Program-made: the position numbers and the translations under genes
Notes under the pieces: model-generated
The model's database searches: none
What the model saw: the letters and a program-made list of their open reading frames with translations, nothing else
What the model was told of the DNA's origin: nothing
Assembly (NCBI RefSeq): GCF_000315915.1
Contig: NC_020188.1
Coordinates: 451,501-515,500 of the forward strand
Length of the DNA stretch: 64,000 nucleotides
Direction of reading: 5' to 3'
From: Henningerozyma blattae CBS 6284
Taxonomy: Eukaryota; Ascomycota; Saccharomycetes; Saccharomycetales; Saccharomycetaceae
Shown here: piece after piece, positions 40,701 through 62,951 of the stretch
Position numbering within the stretch: the first letter of the stretch is position 1
Layout of the letters: every line of letters starts with the position of its first letter

Positions 40701-41449
40701 TCAATATCAATGTAGAATCTAACAATCTTTATTTCCCTTACAAATTGCAGGGATGTGAATCAATTGAAGATCATTCTAATAATGGCCAATTGTTAGCATC
40801 TCTTCGTGTAGCACATAAGCTTATTCCAGAACACACAAGAATAAATAGAATGATTTGTTTGACTAAAGATTATAATTTAAAAGAAGTATTAATTATTACG
40901 AATTTGAAGGCAACAAAATCAGAAAAGAAATATTTAATCGTTCCTAATATTTCTTCTGAGTCATTAGAAATAATAAATACTTGGAAAACACCAATGAAAG
41001 GTAAATTACTAAGTTCAATATCTTATAAGAATATTATGGTTCTAAATATAGCATGGTATGCACTATGTTCGGTAACTGAAGTTTATTTAAGAAAGGTAAA
41101 ATTGGACATGATTCATGGCGGTGAACATTTAATCTCAGAATATAAAATTACTTTACCCAATCAAATTATTAGTATTCGTTCAATAGATCTATCTGAGGAA
41201 GGGAAATTTGATGTTAATCATTACAGGGGACTGTTTGCTATCAATACAGTAGGAGGAGGACAGTTTATAGTAACCTTTTTACCTAACGGAGGGGATACCT
41301 ATCTCAATGAATCATTTATAAATCGTCTATCTGACTATTGTGTTGATAAAATAGAGGAAGAAGCTAATTTGGGATATGAATTACCTATTGATGAACAGAT
41401 ATTTTTTGTAGAAAACAAGAATAGAAGAGGATGGAAAATTTTGAAATAG
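37706..41449 (+). CDS. YEL025C-type protein of unknown function
   Basis: Identified by position: between RIP1 and SNU13, all three orientations match S. cerevisiae YEL024W-YEL025C-YEL026W. The protein has 1247 residues counted from the first ATG at 37706; the frame is open further upstream but only from a TTG. YEL025C is about 1182 residues. The N-terminus MANSTYASSDSEEE is acidic. The remainder is rich in short beta-strand patterns (for example DYLFVIRNDGKLFNF and HNHLFLSDISGYLYDID), consistent with beta-propellers, and ends in a helical stretch INRLSDYCVDKIEEEANLG. No catalytic motif or membrane segment is seen. Function is not inferred beyond a scaffold-like fold. Confidence 0.88.
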   Translation: MANSTYASSDSEEEIHTKAQQRLDSYSDVVISQVNEDYSYTYDGLLHNDIISLNDGTVIRIDIDILIGVPGHTLGALHYWDPFTNRDYLFVIRNDGKLFNFINNVQYDENELPSNILSERRNSNSRWICLETRILFSNDSSKDSTTPTEAKLIIDENYFLLFCCCYPKELFVIKLRRSSIDGQQLLSFETINNDGLNKECIYLPISIDYIYYDISYHEEYATGNEFLFVSALVNDYLSNTFHLYVYQYFPKTSAKRSKTVKDGLHFKLLIDKIIDTDSTSLTLKAVYNVGIIIFTELEIIVVPIDSINSSLVINNFRFNSASNSKDNVYKKILSKKLPQKFFKDVIVSPIKNNGSLQFTLILKNSFRYITIHLNLIFNDIENGLAHYEDFIVDDIKQFQTNTDDYVITNVYYSTALTTKFFVITFTNGLLYTNIVPIPISNFHFIPSQICRLKNKIKLDSLVIENPVIKYEFADNFNKLISIDVVRDESSIMTINYFALENIFNEGSYRSLTQNCNTKIKNIWNTDNGIFYIDDLNILSKLNDPDFEAIEYDIQFIPKNSDIIKDFDPDNVIAISNIQITHSSSNEQLERFSNDFVFIDSNGVIRSSNSKKIFVKPIRLQNFNKLSKFVISSIYFQEKDSLQTVILNDDNQLLILENYATGINNKRIISLESILDNSVCHEILITQHNHLFLSDISGYLYDIDIVNNKLINKVKISDNRLNFEILSMEKHYTLVYSVDCLFIIMFNSKFKKYHINRIDIDLSLKRISVLNENNIIFLTKDNKILQSSFADNSVSCFKPSSLITKAVTFKNISHLCLFKTNISQQYIISSSLKSNESINSFNIDSSGANSTDSILQIHDIINKGEVAYTFNLSEMFPNSFVTSIISLPYKLRSVNTLPYSAYIKSQNYAKNLTFKKCFLVSLDYENHHISSTSTESTTALLKNLLLFSIDPSNGSLELQGSFSLGTNIIKLIPYKNEAVIVFGDCVNIISIDYSIQENIFNINVESNNLYFPYKLQGCESIEDHSNNGQLLASLRVAHKLIPEHTRINRMICLTKDYNLKEVLIITNLKATKSEKKYLIVPNISSESLEIINTWKTPMKGKLLSSISYKNIMVLNIAWYALCSVTEVYLRKVKLDMIHGGEHLISEYKITLPNQIISIRSIDLSEEGKFDVNHYRGLFAINTVGGGQFIVTFLPNGGDTYLNESFINRLSDYCVDKIEEEANLGYELPIDEQIFFVENKNRRGWKILK

Positions 41450-41628
41450 ACTATATGGAAAACTACATAATTAGTCATGACAAATTTCTAATACGGTTAT
41501 TCTATTTACGATATTATAGTATTAAATCGATTTGAATTGGTTTATGAATTAATAAATATGAAAATAAATAAAACTATAAATCATATGAATGGAAATATAT
41601 AAAGTAATAATATACAAACGATTCCAGC

Positions 41629-42012
41629 TTAAATCAATAAAGTTTCAATCTTGTCCTTAACGGCGTAGATTTGGTTTTTGATAGCGGAAGCATCGTTAGT
41701 GGTGATAGAAGCAGCAATAACAGGTCTAGAAACACCGCAAGCTCTACCTAAAGCAACTCTGGATGGAACGAAGACGTAAGCAACATTTTTATCTTCACAT
41801 AATAATGGTAAATGCAATAAGATTTCGATTGGTTCACAATCAGCAGCCATGATGATGAATTCAGAGATACCACGATTCAAAGTCTTGGTAGCTTCATTAG
41901 CACCTTTTTTCAATTGTCTTAGATTGGCAGCTTGTTGAACAACATCCAAGATTTGTTGGGTTAAAGTACCATCAGCTAATGGGAAGGCTTTTGGGTTTGG
42001 AGTGGTAGACAT
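41629..42012 (-). CDS. SNU13: Snu13, L7Ae-family snoRNP and U4/U6.U5 snRNP protein
   Basis: Snu13 binds kink-turns in U4 snRNA and in box C/D snoRNAs (including U3), nucleating both the spliceosomal tri-snRNP and the methylation-guide snoRNPs. The 127-residue sequence is the full L7Ae fold: [19 protein letters not shown] for k-turn contact, [23 protein letters not shown], and [19 protein letters not shown] near the C-terminus. It is nearly collinear with yeast Snu13 (126). The start ATG gives the conserved N-terminus with [11 protein letters not shown]. It is transcribed away from the MULE-derived gene, sharing a 655-base upstream region. Confidence 0.98.
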
Positions 42013-42667
42013 TTTAATAACAATTACTTTTTGGAGAGTGGTTTGATAATTTCAAGTTCCTTGCAAAAGAAGCTCGCCTGAATGGTTTGGTGTGGATATT
42101 GAGATAAGATAAAATATATTTTCAATTCTACTAAAAAAGTTAGCAAAATATGTCCTCCATATATATTCCTACAGATGAGATGATGAGCTAAAAAAATTTT
42201 CAAAGCTGAACGGAAATCTGAAAATTGAAGAAAAAAAGAAAATCTATTCGGACGGAAAAAAAATGATAAAGGCTGTCCCATTACCCGCACACAAACTATC
42301 TCCGGATAAATAGGCTATCTATTCACCGATTAAGTATACGGAATGATAACTATAATGATATTATTAACGTCATTGTTGATCAAAAATCGTTCTTAATTTA
42401 AGCCCTGATTCTGAAACATTCTTAGTTTAAATTTTTAGGTGTATTTTTTTATTACTTTATTAGTATTTCTGTCATGTACAATGGAGTATTCTGTTATGTT
42501 TAACCCTTTTCTCAAATCTTACTGGTTTAGGATGTTGACTTTCCGAAACAACTTTTGAGAATTAATTCGCTATAAAAAAAATGAATTTGATAATAACAAT
42601 CGAAATGTAACTTACATTATTTACCAATCAATAGCCTACCTTAAGCAGGCCATATTCTTTGATCGAT
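42013..42667. other. Divergent region SNU13/MULE-derived gene
   Basis: No gene is seen in these 655 bases. The SNU13 side carries PAC/RRPE-like words and a Reb1 site, listed separately. The half next to the MULE-derived gene shows no recognised site and no terminal inverted repeat. A TTTCCGAAA word near 42540 recalls a centromere element but lacks the surrounding consensus. Confidence 0.5.
42174..42287 (-). promoter_or_regulatory. PAC/RRPE-like words and Reb1 site of SNU13
   Basis: GATGAG occurs twice (42174-42179 and 42182-42187), followed at about 42190-42203 by an A-tract and TTTTCA that read on the SNU13 strand as TGAAAATTTTTT, an RRPE-type word. TTACCCG at 42281-42287 is an exact core site of the general regulatory factor Reb1. 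Together these are typical of ribosome-biogenesis promoters; they lie 160-275 bases before the SNU13 start. Confidence 0.6.
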
Positions 42668-45600
42668 ATGGACATTTCTTTTTTAATCTTCGATCCCAAT
42701 AAGAAACCAGATAATTCTCAACTGCCTACTTCTCGAGAAAATAAGATTCAGTCTGACCAAAATAGAGACCCTTCTGTCACTAACAATTCAAATTCAGTAG
42801 AGCCTGATGATCAAAATCAAAGCTTAAATCAGAATATTATAAGCGGAGATTCTACTCCAAAACAACCACATACACCAGCTAATTCAACACAAAGTTCTAA
42901 AGTAATATCCCAACAATTACCGTGGGATCCAAAATTCTGTAGAACAATTGACTTTCAAGCTAGTCAAACAGGTTTTGATGATCAACTGCAAGATTATGAC
43001 CAAATATTAGGTCCTTCTGATTTTTTTCTGCCTTCCAAGAGAGAGAAGCGTGTCAAAAAATATCTTCTGGGAAAGTTTCATACCGTTTCGGAATTAACGG
43101 GTTACTTGAAGGATAAATTTAATCAAAAAGTATTACAATTAAATATAATTGCTACTATACCGTTCAATGATTTCAATCTTGGTTTTAATCCTTCGGTTCA
43201 AGAAATTTTGAATACATTTTCCTTTCTTTTTGATCAAATTGAAACACATTTAAAAATTAAATTAATTTCTAATGAATTTAAAGATAATTTAGATAAAGAA
43301 AATTCTAAATATATTTCAGTTTTAAAGTTTTGTAAAGATGATATTCAAATATCAGATGGTTATAATAACAATCATATCGTAAAAAAGCCGAAATTAAATG
43401 GCATGGATAATTATTCCACATCTCAGCATATTGGCACTACTGCTGAAACTTCAGGAAATCCCATTCGATTTGATTGCAAATCGAATTTCATATTAGAATC
43501 TAATACTGATTTTGGATTCATTCAACTTACAATGAAACATGATGAACATATTCCTTATCATCCACTAAATATACCTGAAGGATTAAATAGTTTTATACGA
43601 AGTCATTATTTGTTACTTCGAAGTGAACTAATCAATAATTTAAAAAAAAATAACGAATATAATCGATTTATAACTACTTATAAAGAGCGAGCACGTTCAT
43701 ATATTGAAAATGTATGGGCTGATGAAACTGCTTCTACTTGGCGTCGTCATAAAGTTGCATTTCTTAGTGCTATAGATTTGATAAGCACATCCAAATGGAG
43801 TAATTATATTCAAAGAATAACACTTCCTTCTTCATTAATTAATAACTCTTCGTATGTTTCATTTGAATTTAAATATCCAGGGTTTGATAAGATATTTTTT
43901 GGATCTGCAGCGTTAACTAGTGTCCAGAATATTAGTAAAACTTTTAATAACTGTCATATTGTAGTTGGAGATTATAAGGGCCGCGAATTTCCTATTGCAG
44001 TTTTATTTCTTGCCATTGAAGATACCTCACAATGTATCATTGAAAGTTTTTTAGAGGTTCTTAAAGTGAAAGGTTATACTTTTAACTATATCACTACTGA
44101 TCTGCAACTAATACATCGTAATGCAATTGATAAAATATTTGGTTCTAATACTGCTCAACTTTGTTTATGGAATGTGTTAAAGACTATTCGTGAAGTACCA
44201 AGTTGGGATGAATACAAAGTTTTACTTCAAGAAAAGAAAGCCACTAATTATTTACGAAGATATCCATTTTATTCTCAAAATTATGATAAATGTATTGTAC
44301 CATATTTGAATAGTTTTATGTGTCCATCAGTAGAAGAAATTGAAATTGTTCAAAATTTAATGAGACAAGTTTCAAAAATACATAAATATTTTTTTAATGA
44401 AATAAATTTTGAAAATGAAAAAATATATTTAAAATTTGTTGAAGATGTATTTAACGAGTTAATCCTTAAAAGGAAACAAATCAAATATTTTTTTTATTTA
44501 TGGTCTACATTCATTCAACCGTCAAGATTTAAGTTATGGGTGAAGATGTCACATGAAAATATTTTCCCTCTACGGAATACTAATTTAATAATTGATTTAT
44601 TTTTTCATAAATTAGAACATATTTATCCTAAGAGGCCAAGTTCTGTTCGAATTGATACTGTAATTTATGTTATGATTGAAACATTAATTGATAAATATAT
44701 TCCAAAGATTAAACTATATTCCACTGTAACAAATTTACATATCAAAGAGATGACTAATCTAATTAATAAATTTAAAATTCAAATATATGATAAAATTAAT
44801 AATATTTCTACTAAAATTAACTCCACTATTAAAAAAAATAATTTGAAAACTACTGATAAGAATAAATGGAATCAAAGCGTATTATATGCAAAACCTAGTC
44901 TTGAAGATTTAGGTATAAGTGAAGAAAGTGAAAATACTAATCAACACGTAGAGATTGTAATTGATATAAATTCAAGTAGTCAACGATTTTCTGAATTATC
45001 AATGAATTCTGAAGAATATGGTGATGCATTTGATATTGAAGAGATGCGGTTCTCAAAAGATCTTGAATTATATAATAAATTGATTGAAACCAAAGATGAA
45101 CTTTTTAATGAAGTGACAAGAGATTTTACAAATCTTTGCTGCTCATGTAATCGACAACAAGATAATATCTACTTGTTATGTATCCATTTAGTGTATGATT
45201 TCTTACGGAAATATAATTGGAAATATTGGGACAAGCTAGTAACGGAGACCTATTATTGTTATACTTTCCCTGTAGTTCGAAATCGATTTATGGAATGTGA
45301 TGGGAATGGCTTTAGCAAGAATATTGTTGAAACGGAAAAGGAAATAAAACCGGAAGTGGAAGCCGATATTATATCGGAAAAGGAAATGATAACGGAAGAA
45401 AAAATGAAAACGGAAACAAAAGCGGCTAATGAAAAATATGTAGAAACCCTTCCTGAACAAAGGGAAACAAATAGGGAAAATAAGACTGGTATTGATCAAA
45501 TCAGAATAGAAAATGAACAAATGATTCGTATCTTTAATGAATTATCTAAGCTTTCTAATGAAATCCGAAATTCGTTCCTTACGTTTATACAAGAAGATTT

Positions 45601-45766
45601 CAATTACAATTCTATTAAAGTATCGAAATATTATATGATCTTAAAAAAATTAATTCAAGAGATCGAAGCAGGTAAATTTAAAGTTACTATGGATAGACCT
45701 GATTGGATTCCCCTTGAATTTTGGAATACGAGCGTTGAGATTATAAAAAGTTACGAGAATATTTAA
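42668..45766 (+). CDS. MULE-transposase-derived protein with SWIM zinc finger, probably host-adapted
   Basis: 1032 residues from the first ATG (42668; the frame extends a little upstream only from a TTG). Residues 1-85 are Asn/Gln/Ser-rich and disordered. A Cys/His segment (about 269-300, FDCKSNFILESN through KHDEHIPYHPL) resembles the FAR1/WRKY-GCM1-type finger found in front of Mutator-like transposases. The MULE core is about 405-510: VVGDYKGREFPIAVLFLAIED, FNYITTDLQLIHRNAIDKIFG with D478, and C499-L-W501. The first catalytic Asp position seems replaced by Gly-Ser (412-413), and the usual C-x-W-H reads C-L-W-N. A SWIM finger C825-x-C827-x10-C838-x-H840 follows, then a Glu/Lys-rich repeat. 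No terminal inverted repeats flank the gene. It may act as a DNA-binding protein. I recall no S. cerevisiae counterpart. Confidence 0.85.
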   Translation: MDISFLIFDPNKKPDNSQLPTSRENKIQSDQNRDPSVTNNSNSVEPDDQNQSLNQNIISGDSTPKQPHTPANSTQSSKVISQQLPWDPKFCRTIDFQASQTGFDDQLQDYDQILGPSDFFLPSKREKRVKKYLLGKFHTVSELTGYLKDKFNQKVLQLNIIATIPFNDFNLGFNPSVQEILNTFSFLFDQIETHLKIKLISNEFKDNLDKENSKYISVLKFCKDDIQISDGYNNNHIVKKPKLNGMDNYSTSQHIGTTAETSGNPIRFDCKSNFILESNTDFGFIQLTMKHDEHIPYHPLNIPEGLNSFIRSHYLLLRSELINNLKKNNEYNRFITTYKERARSYIENVWADETASTWRRHKVAFLSAIDLISTSKWSNYIQRITLPSSLINNSSYVSFEFKYPGFDKIFFGSAALTSVQNISKTFNNCHIVVGDYKGREFPIAVLFLAIEDTSQCIIESFLEVLKVKGYTFNYITTDLQLIHRNAIDKIFGSNTAQLCLWNVLKTIREVPSWDEYKVLLQEKKATNYLRRYPFYSQNYDKCIVPYLNSFMCPSVEEIEIVQNLMRQVSKIHKYFFNEINFENEKIYLKFVEDVFNELILKRKQIKYFFYLWSTFIQPSRFKLWVKMSHENIFPLRNTNLIIDLFFHKLEHIYPKRPSSVRIDTVIYVMIETLIDKYIPKIKLYSTVTNLHIKEMTNLINKFKIQIYDKINNISTKINSTIKKNNLKTTDKNKWNQSVLYAKPSLEDLGISEESENTNQHVEIVIDINSSSQRFSELSMNSEEYGDAFDIEEMRFSKDLELYNKLIETKDELFNEVTRDFTNLCCSCNRQQDNIYLLCIHLVYDFLRKYNWKYWDKLVTETYYCYTFPVVRNRFMECDGNGFSKNIVETEKEIKPEVEADIISEKEMITEEKMKTETKAANEKYVETLPEQRETNRENKTGIDQIRIENEQMIRIFNELSKLSNEIRNSFLTFIQEDFNYNSIKVSKYYMILKKLIQEIEAGKFKVTMDRPDWIPLEFWNTSVEIIKSYENI

Positions 45767-45910
45767 CTTTATGAAACGTTATAACAATAATAATTGTAGT
45801 ATTAATAATAATAGTAATAATAAAGATAATATATAATTTTTAAAATGTATAAATGAGCTATGATAAAATAGCTTAATAATAATATAATATAACAAAAAAT
45901 ATAAAGTCAA

Positions 45911-46837
45911 TCAATTCATTTTTTTCACATCTCTTTGAGCACGTAATTTCATCTTTTCTTCTCTCTTAGATTTGGCTTCTGGACCAGCTTCAGTGTCCAA
46001 ACAATAATCCCACCATCTGAAAGAAGAAGCATAATTACCAATGAAATAATGATGATGTAAATCATGGTGTTCGGCACCAGCCCAGAATGGTAAGAATTTA
46101 TTTAAACTCCAAGGAAAGTCATAACCGGAGTGAGAATCCACAGCTTGGAATAATCTAAGAGTGATCCAAAGACATAAAGTAAATAAATGTAAATCACCTG
46201 TGTAAAGAACATAAAAGATTGGCATCCCAACGGTACCGAACCCTAAACTTAATGTTTCAGCTGGATGAGCATACTCTGCAGATAATCCAAATGGAGCCGC
46301 ATAACGGTGGTGTTGCTTGTGAATGTATTTGTAAAAGACGCCATAATGGAAAAGACGATGAGCCCAATAATGCCACACATCTTCAAGGACAAAGAAAAGG
46401 GCAATTTCTGGAACCATTTTTTTCCAAGATGGGAATGGAGCAGTCACTTTAATACCTAGAGTTTCACACAATGGATGGAAAGTCCAAATAGGAATGGCTT
46501 CAACAAGAAAATGTGATAATAAGACCGATTTGAAACAATACCATTGTTCTTTTATAGTTGGAATCTTTGTAGGTTGTAATTTCCAACGGCGGAAATAAGG
46601 GATTTGGTCTATAATGAACCAAGGGAGCGATCTGGAGAAATAGACAAACTCATGCAACAGGAAGAACATGAGACCAGTGGCCAAGATATCATTTGACATA
46701 TAAATATACCATGAAGCCCAATATTTTTCTATTAATGTTAATTGTGGTTGGTATAGGGATACATTTTTCAACGTTGCGGAGAAAGTATCGGCGTGAACTA
46801 GAGATACTAGTGACACATTAGCGAATACTGTGGACAT
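45911..46837 (-). CDS. ERG25: C-4 methylsterol oxidase
   Basis: This ER membrane di-iron enzyme performs the first oxidation in removal of the two C-4 methyl groups during ergosterol synthesis, with Erg26, Erg27 and Erg28. All three histidine boxes are visible: HRLFH (about 160-164), HKQHH (about 173-177) and HHDLHHH (about 257-263). Hydrophobic spans lie around residues 50-70, 105-120 and 195-225. The C-terminus KKMN is a KKXX ER-retrieval signal. Length 308 versus 309 in yeast, with very high identity. The upstream region has three tandem TCGTATA sterol elements, so control by Upc2/Ecm22 is likely. In yeast it lies three genes from LST7. Confidence 0.98.
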
Positions 46838-49478: not shown

Positions 49479-50660
49479 GAAAATATTACAATGTTGCTAA
49501 ATTGTGGGGTTATGAGCAATGTAATCGGTAACCAATTGGTAAATAAGTTGAAATTAGAACCTGGAGTATTGGATACTTCAGTTGCTCTTATAGGTTATAA
49601 CGAAGGAGCCATGGTAGAAAATCCTAGCATGGTACCCTTTCGAAGTTATAGGTCAAAAGCTAAACACACATGTATTAGTTTTTGGTACACTGTATGAAGA
49701 TCGTTTCTTGAAAATGCCATTTGTGTATAGTCATGCTGATAATTACAGGAGACGAGAGAACATCGGAAAAGCATATATATCTATGTAACTCTAAGAGCAC
49801 TATTGCTGATTCTGGTGTAGAAACACCTTATGTATAATCTAGAAGAGAGAAACAAGACAGGTTAACCATAGACTGTAAAGAAGGGATAGCAAATATGAGT
49901 GCAATCTGTTATTGGCACATTCTGATGAAAAACAGAGAAATATTCCAGCGGACCAATTATAGAAGCAGGTGCTGAGCAAACACCAATATGTAGAAACAAA
50001 GGACCACAACCGAAATAATATATAGTGGTAAAATTAAACACTACATCGAAGTAGTTACAGATAAGGTAATTCCACATATCCGTTCTCAAAGGATATCTGA
50101 TGATGGTAAAAAAATTATCTAGACAATTAGGTCAATTATTGGGGGGTAGGCGTATTTATCCTACCTCATCATCTTATGGCGCACCAGTGTTAGTCATTAT
50201 TAAGAAAATTGGTACAAAGAGATTATGTGTAGGTTTTAGAAAATTAACTGAAGATACTGTCAAGAGCATGTTTCTACTACCATTAGGTGACAATCTATTC
50301 GATCAATTGAAAGGTGCAAATTGGTGTTCATCGTTAGTTGTTTATTGCAGATGGCACCAAGTCCTTGTAGGGGAGGAAAATCAAGCCAAGACTATCTCTG
50401 TGACGCATCAAGGTTAGTATGGTTATTGGTTTCAGAATGACGAATGCACTTCCTATATTTAAGAAGATGATAGATTATCAGTTGAAAGATTTTTATTGGT
50501 AGATTCATCTGTGTAGTTGATTTTAATCTATTCTAAGACAAAAGAAGAGTATTAGGAGCGCGTACGTATGATGTTTGATAGATTGAATAAGTACAAATTA
50601 ATTTCTGGAAGGTCCAAATGTTACTTTTTCAGAAGGGAAGTCTAATTATAGCACTGCGAG
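49479..50660 (+). mobile_element. Decayed Ty3/gypsy retrotransposon pol remnant
   Basis: Pieces of a gypsy polyprotein appear in order but in shifting frames. A retropepsin-like stretch at about 49488-49640 reads MLLNCGVMSNVIGNQLVNKL, then IGYNEGAMVENPSMVPF, with the catalytic Asp position changed to Asn. Reverse transcriptase starts at about 50130-50410: SSSYGAPVLVIIKK, RLCVGFRKL (usually CVD) and NLFDQLKGANW. It continues after stops and shifts to LILIYSKTKEEY, a stop, then MMFDRLNKYKL and SKCYFF at about 50520-50640. The YLDD catalytic box is broken. This is a dead element; no LTR pair or integrase was recognised. Confidence 0.85.
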
Positions 50661-52221: not shown

Positions 52222-54213
52222 ATGCCTATGGATATGCCTATCCTTATTTGTTTATACAATAATAACAATAATGCAATGAAAATGTTTAGATTTAGATTAC
52301 CGTACCAAGTTTTAGTCTCTAAACGGTACTTACGAACGTTATTAAACATATTATTAATAGTTCTTGGAGTGTTAGTTGTGTATGCAACACATCAAAAGAT
52401 AATATTTCGTCATGAGTTGCCTATTGAATTTACATTTGATGAAAATTACTTCCGTCATTATTACGAATCTTTCCCTGAACAGAAACAATTTGATTACTTT
52501 GCTGGTGATAATGACTATTACGACAATTATTACAAGTTGAATAATATGGTCCCACCGGGTAATGTAATATTGAATATTGGAATTCAAGATTGTACGAATG
52601 TGTTTAACTTAAATATGTTTTGTACTAACAAAGACTCTTTGGCCTCTATTCTTTCATCTGAGGACTCTTTAAATACAGTTGCCAATTACACTGCACGTAC
52701 AGTTCTACGTCCCGATATAAGCGTAGATTCGAGATATTTTTCACGATACGTTTATTTCGATTCCATACCATTGGAAACACTTTTACAATTAGAAGTGCCT
52801 GAATTACAAATACCTCTATTACAAAATGCTCCTGATGAATCATCAACAATCAATTGGCTCGGTATAATCTTCCGTCACACTACTTTGCAATCTCTTCTTT
52901 CTTCGGACCAACCTCTCGCCACGCATGCATACCAACATGGTCTAATATCTAATGCAGATGTGTTATTCGGTCATGACGCAGTAGAACCTCGACCCAATTA
53001 CGCTTTACAAGGGGTTATTGCTAACGGTTCCGACTCGCTCCCTGCATGGCTTTCGCTTCAGATATTCTCACCACCTCAGCGGCTATCACACCAAGACGGT
53101 CCTCGCCTGACAACTGACCCTGCAAATCATAAATTCAAAATTGTGCAATTGGCAGATCTACACTTGAGTACTGGCTATGGTGTTTGTCGAGACCCATTTC
53201 CTGCCAACCTTATAGCTGACGACGGTTCATGCCATGCAGACCCATTAACTTTACAATTTGTATCACAAGTCCTAGACGAAGAACAGCCACAATTAGTAGT
53301 ATTCTCTGGTGATCAAATCATGGGTGACAGATGCAAGGCAGATTCTAAGACTGCTTTACTGAAAGCTGTGGCACCTGTGATCCAACGTGGTATCCCTTGG
53401 GCTATGATCTGGGGTAACCATGATGATGAGGGCTCTATGGACCGTATCGAGATCTCTGAGTTTGCAGCTGCTCTCCCTGGCTCACAATTTCAATTCACTC
53501 CCTTTGACACTTCTGACAACACATTTGGGGTGGGAAATTACCTCCTAAATGTATACGATACTCAAGACGTTACACAGGTTACCCCTGCATTTACCCTATA
53601 CTTCCTAGACTCTCACAAGTATGCCACTACTGGCCGTTTCTCTGCTGGTTACGACTGGGTCAAACCCAAACAACTTCATTACTTCCAATACCAACACGAC
53701 CAATTACCGCCTACAGAACCTCAACACATCAGCATGGCATTCCTTCATATCCCAGTACCAGAATACCGCAACTTGCAATCCAATCGTCCGGAAACTCGCG
53801 GCGAATTAAACCCCTTCGTAGGGAACCACAAAGAACCTGTGACTGCTCCTGCGCGTGATTCAGGCACTCTATCAATGCTTCAACAGCTGGGTATCTCTGT
53901 CGTATCATGTGGCCATGATCATTGTAATGATTACTGTTTAGAAGACGACTCAACAGGCAGCGATGTATGGCTATGTTATGGTGGTGCTGCAGGTGAAGGT
54001 GGTTATAGTGGTTATGGTGGAACAGAACGTAGAATACGTATCTACGAGCTCGATGCAAAGGCAGGACGTGTAGTCACTTGGAAACGCAGAAGAGGTAGCA
54101 TGAACGAGGCACGTGACTACCAAGTTTTAGTTGACCGCGAAACTGAATCAGACCTGCACGTGCCCGAAGTGCCGGACTTTCCGAGGGCACCACAGGCGAG
54201 CGATATGCAGTGA
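52222..54213 (+). CDS. DCR2: Dcr2-type calcineurin-like phosphoesterase, membrane-anchored
   Basis: Dcr2 is a metallophosphatase that promotes G1 exit (through Sic1) and dampens the unfolded protein response (through Ire1). A hydrophobic segment TLLNILLIVLGVLVVYATH (about residues 39-57) is a signal anchor. The metal-binding core of the phosphoesterase is visible: QLADLHLSTG, VFSGDQIMGD, WGNHDDEGS, FLHIPVPEY and SCGHDHCNDY (about residues 310-575). The end GYSGYGGTERRIRIYELD is shared with Sia1 and Dcr2. At 663 residues it is longer than yeast Dcr2 (578). Sia1 is the closest alternative, but LST7 and RSC1/RSC2 next door support DCR2. The start could be the codon at 52276 (MKMFRF), which removes 18 residues. 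Confidence 0.87.
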   Translation: MPMDMPILICLYNNNNNAMKMFRFRLPYQVLVSKRYLRTLLNILLIVLGVLVVYATHQKIIFRHELPIEFTFDENYFRHYYESFPEQKQFDYFAGDNDYYDNYYKLNNMVPPGNVILNIGIQDCTNVFNLNMFCTNKDSLASILSSEDSLNTVANYTARTVLRPDISVDSRYFSRYVYFDSIPLETLLQLEVPELQIPLLQNAPDESSTINWLGIIFRHTTLQSLLSSDQPLATHAYQHGLISNADVLFGHDAVEPRPNYALQGVIANGSDSLPAWLSLQIFSPPQRLSHQDGPRLTTDPANHKFKIVQLADLHLSTGYGVCRDPFPANLIADDGSCHADPLTLQFVSQVLDEEQPQLVVFSGDQIMGDRCKADSKTALLKAVAPVIQRGIPWAMIWGNHDDEGSMDRIEISEFAAALPGSQFQFTPFDTSDNTFGVGNYLLNVYDTQDVTQVTPAFTLYFLDSHKYATTGRFSAGYDWVKPKQLHYFQYQHDQLPPTEPQHISMAFLHIPVPEYRNLQSNRPETRGELNPFVGNHKEPVTAPARDSGTLSMLQQLGISVVSCGHDHCNDYCLEDDSTGSDVWLCYGGAAGEGGYSGYGGTERRIRIYELDAKAGRVVTWKRRRGSMNEARDYQVLVDRETESDLHVPEVPDFPRAPQASDMQ

Positions 54214-62529: not shown

Positions 62530-62765
62530 TAATTCATGTTGGAATATTTATTATATTAAGTTGTTATTGGTTGTTGTATAAATCTACAATTACGACTAAA
62601 TTCATACTTTATTAGCTGTTAACACAAACCCACGATTTATGACACATAATGTCACAGCTCTGACAGGTTTTTATTAGTAACGTATATTCACATTATACTA
62701 TCTTTTATCCTAAATCAGTATATCTACTGTTGTATGTATAAAGACCATGAATATCTAGCAAGTAC
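62530..62765 (+). repeat. Dispersed repeat copy B, near the tRNA pair
   Basis: 62666-62761 is the best-conserved match to copy A. The left part shares AATTCATGTT with copy C at the corresponding distance. The TGTTGGAATA at about 62538 recalls the start of a Ty1/Ty2 LTR, though in the alignment it is not clearly a terminus. It lies about 190 bases from tRNA-Val, the downstream (3') gene of the minus-strand tRNA pair. Confidence 0.6.
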
Positions 62766-62951
62766 TCTTAATCTTTAGTTTATAATTTTACCGTTTTGTT
62801 TACATAAAAAATTACTGCACAGTAGCAATAATAAAAATAAAATTTGAATTTTATAATAAAAACATAAAAATAACAAAACACACACAATAAACTTTATTGT
62901 GATAAGTTATATCACGTGAACAGTACAAATCGAGAAAGAAAAAATATAATT

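What the first reader, a model, noticed from the sequence alone, without database searches (positions are those of the whole stretch)
42668..45766. Host-adapted MULE transposase gene with FAR1/WRKY-GCM1-like finger and SWIM finger
A single long intact frame combines a Cys/His segment of FAR1/WRKY-GCM1 type, a MULE core and a SWIM CxCx10CxH finger. This is the layout of Mutator-like transposases. It has no visible terminal inverted repeats, an ordinary divergent promoter with SNU13 and host-like AT-rich coding. I recall no S. cerevisiae counterpart. Established precedent: K. lactis uses a MULE-type protein (alpha3) in mating-type switching, and FAR1/FHY3 in plants are transposase-derived regulators. 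A similar domestication here, as regulator or DNA-rearrangement factor, is inference.
Basis: partly seen in the sequence, partly recalled or inferred. Interest (0 to 1): 0.8.

Follow-up and report, generated by a model that had tools for sequence, protein, structure and literature searches.

The report
Probable retired transposase gene in yeast
A budding yeast carries one intact gene that appears to descend from a jumping-gene enzyme but seems to have lost parts of its cutting site, so it is more likely a DNA-binding protein kept by the yeast than a mobile element, although this is not proven.

Summary
The 1032-aa frame (42668-45766, +) is real. Species: Tetrapisispora (Henningerozyma) blattae, inferred from a labelled protein on the same contig. 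Pfam MULE matches below its cut-off (18.3 against 27.6 bits, E 0.003). A SWIM-type CxCx10CxH motif stands in the expected C-terminal place (4 of 5000 shuffles), but the SWIM and FAR1 profiles do not match; the FAR1/WRKY-GCM1 finger is unsupported. Searches found one intact copy and one decayed relic, no other copy of its flanks beyond AT-rich sequence, and no MULE-sized inverted repeats. A different MULE family, M2, does show many relics. New point: the active site looks damaged. D478 (D2) is kept; CxxH reads CxxN at D2+24, where His is essential in Muta1; the third acid is probably Asp, not Glu; the first Asp is uncertain. Best reading: a MULE-derived protein unlikely to transpose, probably retained as a nuclear DNA-binding protein. 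Orthologues, selection and function could not be tested. It lies on another contig from both MATalpha1 copies, unlike K. lactis alpha3.

The parts
42668..45766 (+). 1032-aa intact open reading frame, MULE-derived protein
43331..43561 (+). residues 222-298, C222..C270..H291/H294/H298: the segment called FAR1/WRKY-GCM1; not supported as such
43886..43888 (+). codon of D407, the only acidic residue from 401 to 434; possible but ill-placed first catalytic Asp
43955..44182 (+). residues 430-505, MULE (PF10551) core match, profile 19-98 of 99, below cut-off
44099..44101 (+). codon of D478, proposed second catalytic Asp, retained
   Evidence: assignment by motif, inference
44171..44173 (+). codon of N502, 24 residues after D478, in the place of the essential His of the CxxH motif
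44537..44539 (+). codon of W624, 19 residues before D643 (Muta1 W401-E419 are 18 apart)
44594..44596 (+). codon of D643, proposed third acid, Asp instead of Glu
   Evidence: position by spacing and motif, inference
45140..45187 (+). residues 825-840, SWIM-like CxCx10CxH motif; inside the segment shared with the decayed relic on contig C6

Best explanation
The gene descends from a Mutator-like (MULE) transposase, has probably lost the ability to cut DNA, and is kept by the yeast as an ordinary chromosomal gene. Shown: the intact frame, one intact copy in the searches made, a weak MULE core match, a SWIM-type motif, and no MULE-sized inverted repeats. Inferred: that the altered CxxN motif and the Asp in third position abolish transposition; that the gene is retained by selection; and that the SWIM region and remaining transposase scaffold bind DNA or a chromatin partner in the nucleus, so that the protein acts as a regulator, as the plant FHY3/FAR1 proteins do and MUSTANG proteins are thought to.
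For: MULE core match and SWIM motif in the right order. One intact copy and one relic, while the same kind of search with M2 gave 23 matching stretches: M2 itself, M3, and 21 pieces at 8 other places. DNA matches of the gene with its flanks lie only in AT-rich 3' sequence. No MULE-sized inverted repeats. D478 kept; N at D2+24 where Muta1 has H307; D643 19 residues after W624 (Muta1 W401-E419: 18). Alanine at any of D214, D283, E419, H307 or W401 abolished Muta1 transposition (PMC5225508, section 11 read). The SWIM segment is shared with a diverged relic: 47 codons, identity 0.40/0.68/0.43 at codon positions 1/2/3, dN 0.59 (NG86) with dS beyond estimation, which fits long protein-level constraint. 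MUSTANG proteins keep the SWIM CCCH residues but most have lost at least one DDE residue (PMC3435246, passages).
Against: The MULE match is below Pfam's cut-off, and hhalign found no link to the two-sequence M2/M3 alignment (low power), so the active-site reading rests on spacing and motifs. D407 lies 71 residues before D478 (Muta1 69, M2 63, M3 64), so the first Asp may be present. H-to-N and E-to-D are not the changes tested in Muta1 (Ala was). C499 is 21 residues after D478, outside the 11-19 given for prokaryotic relatives (PMC3942029, passages), though as in Muta1. No orthologue was found, so conserved position and host selection are untested. The relic shows that the family was duplicated or mobile once. 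The single-sequence model of residues 805-870 (pLDDT 74) is three helices without the expected hairpin; its best Pfam hit is an unrelated one at E 0.05. The core model is uninformative (pLDDT 35.7).
Confidence: 0.5

Rival explanations
1. A lone immobile transposon copy: a MULE that lost its ends and active site recently and has not yet decayed, with no host function.
For: A decayed relative lies beside H3 and H4 genes in a stretch with Ty1/copia-like fragments. No orthologue was found. The genome holds genuine MULE relics of another family.
Against: 1032 codons stay open although key residues have changed, so mobility cannot easily be what keeps the frame, unless the changes are recent. Codon usage is host-like. 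No element ends were seen.
Confidence: 0.27
2. A still competent DNA-rearrangement enzyme, working like K. lactis alpha3 in programmed cutting at a fixed site.
For: alpha3 is a MULE-type protein that acts in mating-type switching (PMC5499181, passages). D407, D478 and D643 could form a DDD triad with a D1-D2 spacing close to Muta1 (71 against 69).
Against: H-to-N in the CxxH motif. Both MATalpha1 copies are on C1, the gene is on C4. No terminal repeats seen.
Confidence: 0.1
3. Not a MULE derivative: an orphan host protein with a chance sub-threshold match and a chance zinc-binding motif.
For: The MULE match is below the cut-off. PF04434 and PF03101 are silent. No profile link to M2/M3. The SWIM piece folds without a hairpin in a single-sequence model.
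Against: E 0.002-0.003 over all 24736 Pfam models, an independent SWIM motif (4 of 5000 shuffles) in the right order, and matching D2-N and W-D spacings. M3, a clear relative of M2, also escapes the Pfam MULE model, so a weak score does not exclude membership.
Confidence: 0.13

Closest known systems
Kluyveromyces lactis alpha3 (MATalpha3), MULE-type transposase
   Same: Budding-yeast gene of MULE type used by its host (PMC5499181 and PMC2762165, passages)
   Different: alpha3 lies next to the MATalpha genes and the MULE is excised in switching; this gene is on another contig from both MATalpha1 copies and its active site looks altered. No alpha3 sequence was available here, so kinship was not compared.
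Plant MUSTANG (MUG) and FHY3/FAR1 families
   Same: MULE-derived host genes with MULE core then SWIM; MUSTANG keeps the SWIM residues while most members lack part of the DDE triad (PMC3435246, passages; FAR1-MULE-SWIM layout in PMC8599713, passages)
   Different: Their N-terminal DNA-binding domain is recognisable; here it is unsupported. They form families conserved across many plants; here one gene in one species so far.
Muta1, active MULE of Aedes aegypti
   Same: D2 to CxxH spacing (24) and W to third-acid spacing (18 against 19)
   Different: Muta1 has an intact DDE triad and H307, long terminal repeats and 8 or 9 bp target duplications (PMC5225508, passages and section 11)
M2 (TBLA_0D02870) and M3 of the same genome
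   Same: MULE-type proteins with a C-terminal Cys/His finger-like segment
   Different: No detectable pairwise or profile similarity to the target. M2 is multicopy with an intact triad; M3 is single and intact with H-to-N and E-to-K.

Membership tests
MULE transposase (PF10551) | Profile match over the curated cut-off | tested here: not met
   18.3-19.0 bits against 27.6, E 0.0031-0.0019
MULE transposase (PF10551) | DDE triad plus C(2)H motif | tested here: inconclusive
   D478 kept; CxxN at 499-502; D643 for Glu; no acid at the best D1 position, D407 possible; the alignment rests on spacing
SWIM finger (PF04434) | CxCx(n)CxH C-terminal to the core | tested here: met
   Residues 825-840; 4 of 5000 shuffles
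SWIM finger (PF04434) | Profile match | tested here: not met
   No match in the protein at E<=10 or in the genome at E<=1; the model rang in 12 of 14 control genomes
SWIM finger (PF04434) | Beta hairpin followed by a helix | tested here: inconclusive
   Single-sequence model of residues 805-870, pLDDT 74, three helices and no hairpin
FAR1 / WRKY-GCM1 | N-terminal FAR1-type finger (PF03101) | tested here: not met
   No match in protein or genome; loose C2H2 pattern in 125 of 5000 shuffles and 2 of 21 other ORFs; PF03101 rang in none of the 14 control genomes
Active Mutator-like element | Long terminal inverted repeats | tested here: not met
   None of MULE size in 41449-46837 (gapless pairs, 25 longest of 45 shown); target duplications were not searched for, there being no ends to search from
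Active Mutator-like element | Several similar copies in the genome | tested here: not met
   One intact copy and one relic; M2 as positive control
Domesticated transposase | Collinear orthologues in related species | not testable with these tools
   No yeast relatives held; only the target itself returned
Domesticated transposase | Purifying selection on the gene as a host gene | tested here: inconclusive
   Only 47 codons against a relic: dN 0.59, dS beyond estimation
K. lactis alpha3 system | Location in the MATalpha cassette | tested here: not met
   MATalpha_HMGbox matches at C1:1728048-1728227 and C1:1881817-1881996 only; gene on C4

The most novel reading that the evidence does not exclude
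T. blattae holds two separately retired MULE proteins, the target and M3. Each has an intact frame, a single intact copy, CxxN instead of CxxH, and a changed third acid (Asp in the target, Lys in M3). They sit in a genome where a third MULE lineage, M2, has left derivatives 83-97% alike. The two may have been recruited independently as DNA-binding regulators, or as repressors that block live MULEs.
Probability: 0.2. Interest if true: 0.65.

Novelty: new member of a known kind. Interest (0 to 1): 0.45.

Why it matters
In the passages read here the only host-used MULE gene of a budding yeast is K. lactis alpha3, which still works through DNA cutting. A MULE protein that lost cutting but stayed intact in another yeast would show a second route of recruitment in a genetically tractable group, parallel to FHY3/FAR1 and MUSTANG in plants. 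The paper searches behind this cover open-licence papers only; the original alpha3 paper was not held, and a Yarrowia paper listed with Mutator-like elements was not read.

Tried and rejected
A FAR1/WRKY-GCM1 finger: rejected as unsupported. Kinship with M2/M3: no BLAST or hhalign signal. The repeat upstream of the C6 relic as a terminal repeat of this gene: rejected; at three of its five other places (the three examined) it lies in or beside Ty1/copia-like reading frames (label by eye). DNA matches of the target's 3' flank: AT-rich low-complexity sequence, window 45778-45903. Structure prediction of the core from one sequence: useless. The SWIM piece folded without a hairpin, reported as a result against the reading; no fold search was run. 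NCBIfam: nothing for the target. PHROGs: only families of unknown function, E 0.049 and worse. PDB sequences: one chance match, E 1.6. Terminal repeats and target duplications of the M2 derivatives: none found.

Full report
What was checked. The finding names one long frame at 42668-45766. It is there: 1032 codons on the + strand with ATG and stop. In 500 single-base shuffles the longest stop-free run was 119 codons, and the other five frames of the stretch reach at most 101. Codon usage lies within the range of 21 other ORFs of the window; GC3 (0.194) is the fourth lowest of the 22. The neighbours are an L7Ae-family gene (SNU13, name recalled) transcribed away from it and a fatty-acid hydroxylase gene (ERG25, name recalled). 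The window is C4:451501-515500 of a 14.04 Mb genome in 10 contigs. A second protein on the same contig carries the label TBLA_0D02870, Henningerozyma blattae CBS 6284, so the species is taken to be Tetrapisispora (Henningerozyma) blattae.

Domains. Pfam's MULE model matches residues 430-505 with 18.3 bits, E 0.0031, below the curated 27.6; residues 395-691 alone give 19.0 bits, E 0.0019. The SWIM-like motif CxCx10CxH stands at 825-840; it occurs in 4 of 5000 shuffles of the protein and in 0 of 21 other window ORFs. The Pfam SWIM model matches nowhere in the genome at E<=1, although it rang in 12 of 14 control genomes; it therefore also misses the finger-like ends of M2 and M3. The FAR1 model matches nowhere, but rang in no control genome either. 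A caution on profile scores: M3, a clear relative of M2 (33% over 388 aligned columns), gets no MULE match either.

Copies. The whole protein finds itself and one decayed piece at C6:196046-196189, 44% over residues 811-858 with two stops. Two part searches, residues 255-691 and 795-1032, add no new place. A frameshift-tolerant alignment extends the relic to residues 795-906, score 112, against 60 single-base shuffles with mean 62.5, sd 9.3 and maximum 96; the other strand scores 69. The relic lies beside genes that read as histones H3 and H4 (by eye). Upstream of it is a dispersed repeat with five other places; at the three examined it lies in or beside Ty1/copia-like frames (by eye). In 47 aligned codons identity is 0.40, 0.68 and 0.43 at positions 1, 2 and 3; NG86 gives dN 0.59 and no estimate of dS, and two other methods failed. 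Permuting the codons gives 0.27-0.31 with sd 0.06 at each position, so only the second position stands out clearly. That fits long protein-level constraint on a very small sample, and does not say whether host or transposon imposed it. As a positive control, M2 gives 23 matching stretches in the same genome: itself, M3, and 21 pieces at 8 other places.

Element ends. Of 45 gapless inverted-repeat pairs in 41449-46837 the 25 longest were shown; the longest is 28 nt at 71%, far from the >100 bp terminal repeats typical of MULEs (PMC5225508, passages). The gene with its flanks has 11 DNA matches elsewhere, all within an AT-rich stretch at 45778-45903.

Active site. In Muta1, a MULE shown to transpose, D214, D283, E419, H307 and W401 are each needed; alanine at any of them abolished transposition (PMC5225508, section 11 read). 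In the target D478 takes the place of D283. C499-x2-N502 stands where CxxH should be, and N502 is 24 residues after D478, as H307 is after D283. W624 and D643 are 19 apart, against 18 for W401 and E419. The first Asp is uncertain. By the I-F-x-D pattern of M2 its place would be G412 (my alignment by eye). The only acidic residue from 401 to 434 is D407, 71 before D478 (Muta1 69, M2 63, M3 64), but it is 35 residues before the proline that follows 25 after the Asp in M2. So one residue essential in Muta1 (His) and probably a second (Glu) are changed. H-to-N and E-to-D themselves were not tested in that paper. In prokaryotic relatives the C/D(2)H motif lies 11-19 residues after D2 (PMC3942029, passages); C499 is 21 after it, as the spacing of Muta1 implies.

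What it most likely does. Mobility cannot easily explain an open frame of this length if the enzyme cannot cut. The simplest reading is a host-retained, MULE-derived nuclear protein that binds DNA or chromatin through the SWIM region and the transposase scaffold. Retention and function are inference. Plant MUSTANG genes show a like pattern: the SWIM residues are kept and most proteins have lost at least one DDE residue (PMC3435246, passages). A role like K. lactis alpha3 is less likely: alpha3 lies beside the MATalpha locus (PMC5499181, passages), while here both MATalpha1 matches are on C1 and the gene is on C4.

What stands against it. The MULE score is below the cut-off. hhalign found no link to M2/M3, with only one sequence against two. 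Two searches with the target in 5.8 billion proteins returned only the target; one search drew its words from the first 500 residues, from residues 470-870. The search with M2 returned only M2 and not M3 of the same genome, so, if M3 is held there, such searches miss true relatives and their silence says little. Every statement on selection is limited by this. The structure models do not help: core pLDDT 35.7, SWIM piece pLDDT 74 but all helical.

Other MULE proteins of this genome. M2 (C4:706105-707871) has D234, D297, H320 and E400 in place and is just over the MULE cut-off (28.6 against 27.6). Four derivatives at other loci share an internal deletion and one sharp left end. M3 (C7:302341-304668, 775 aa from ATG, two masked residues) has D376 and D440 but N463 and K544, numbered in its 808-residue open frame. 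Its only matches elsewhere are M2, M2 relics, and decayed pieces at C2:1311963-1312780 of 31-49% identity. M3 is thus a second candidate for a retired transposase, and the pair is the basis of the novel reading.

Literature. Searches for T. blattae with transposon and domesticated (2 papers), MULE with Saccharomycetaceae and transposase (2 papers), two of Mutator, Tetrapisispora and class II transposon (20 of 66 listed, none of the 20 with Tetrapisispora) and TBLA0D (none) showed no description of this gene in the open-licence library. The alpha3 paper (PMC2802189) and the WRKY-GCM1 paper (PMC1702500) are not held and are known here only through other papers or recall. Papers seen: passages of PMC5499181, PMC2762165, PMC8599713, PMC3435246 and PMC3942029; passages and section 11 of PMC5225508; all others as listings.

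Verdict. A real gene, MULE-derived with good but not final support, single and without element ends in the tests available here, and probably catalytically impaired. Domestication is likely but unproven.

Noticed in passing
L032:3315, L033:3572, L040:3157, L039 reverse strand:3438 (C2:2287314, C1:2612571, C8:154656, C1:1820062): Four M2 derivatives share a left end GAGACTTGACAACCTG and have CACGTG 36, 35, 36 and 24 bp before it, in otherwise different flanks. 114 of 19140 sampled 40-bp stretches hold CACGTG. A further copy at C1:774374-774606 lacks the end and was not examined. Possible insertion preference near an E-box.
   Followed up: partly
L030:2842-5169 (C7:302341-304668): M3: single intact 775-aa MULE-type gene with CxxN and Lys at the third acid, about 3 kb from a gene that reads like ribosomal P0 (by eye); a second candidate retired transposase.
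   Followed up: partly
window 62761-62895: 83% match to the right part of the M2 derivative; a CACGTG starts 18 bases after its end (62913) and a tRNA-Val gene 56 bases after it (62951).
   Followed up: partly
L030:6681-7533 and L005:7168-8023: A 93% identical duplicate of about 860 bp holding a Cys-rich, metallothionein-like ORF (by eye) lies near M3 on C7 and near the target's relic on C6.
   Followed up: no
L003:1982-2058: A short repeat just 3' of the C6 relic recurs at C10:97769, C6:198298, C4:345496 and C3:912637, 77-84% identical; nature unknown.
   Followed up: no
window 50100-50417: Short ORF that reads like a decayed Ty3/gypsy reverse transcriptase (by eye).
   Followed up: no
window 36454-59672: By recalled S. 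cerevisiae gene order, RIP1-YEL025C-SNU13 on the left and ERG25-LST7-RSC1 on the right come from different chromosomes, so the gene would sit at a synteny break.
   Followed up: no
L004:8010-9983: ORF near M2 with GCR1_C and NDC10_II domains, a Crypton-like layout (recalled).
   Followed up: no
L039 (C1:1819399-1820062): An M2 relic lies between the two MATalpha1 matches at C1:1728048 and C1:1881817; perhaps chance.
   Followed up: no
window 1-64000: CACGTG occurs 9 times against 2.39 expected; 0 of 100 shuffles reached 9.
   Followed up: no
window 52222-54213: Metallophosphatase ORF with the highest GC1 and GC3 of the 22 window ORFs compared (0.541 and 0.351).
   Followed up: no
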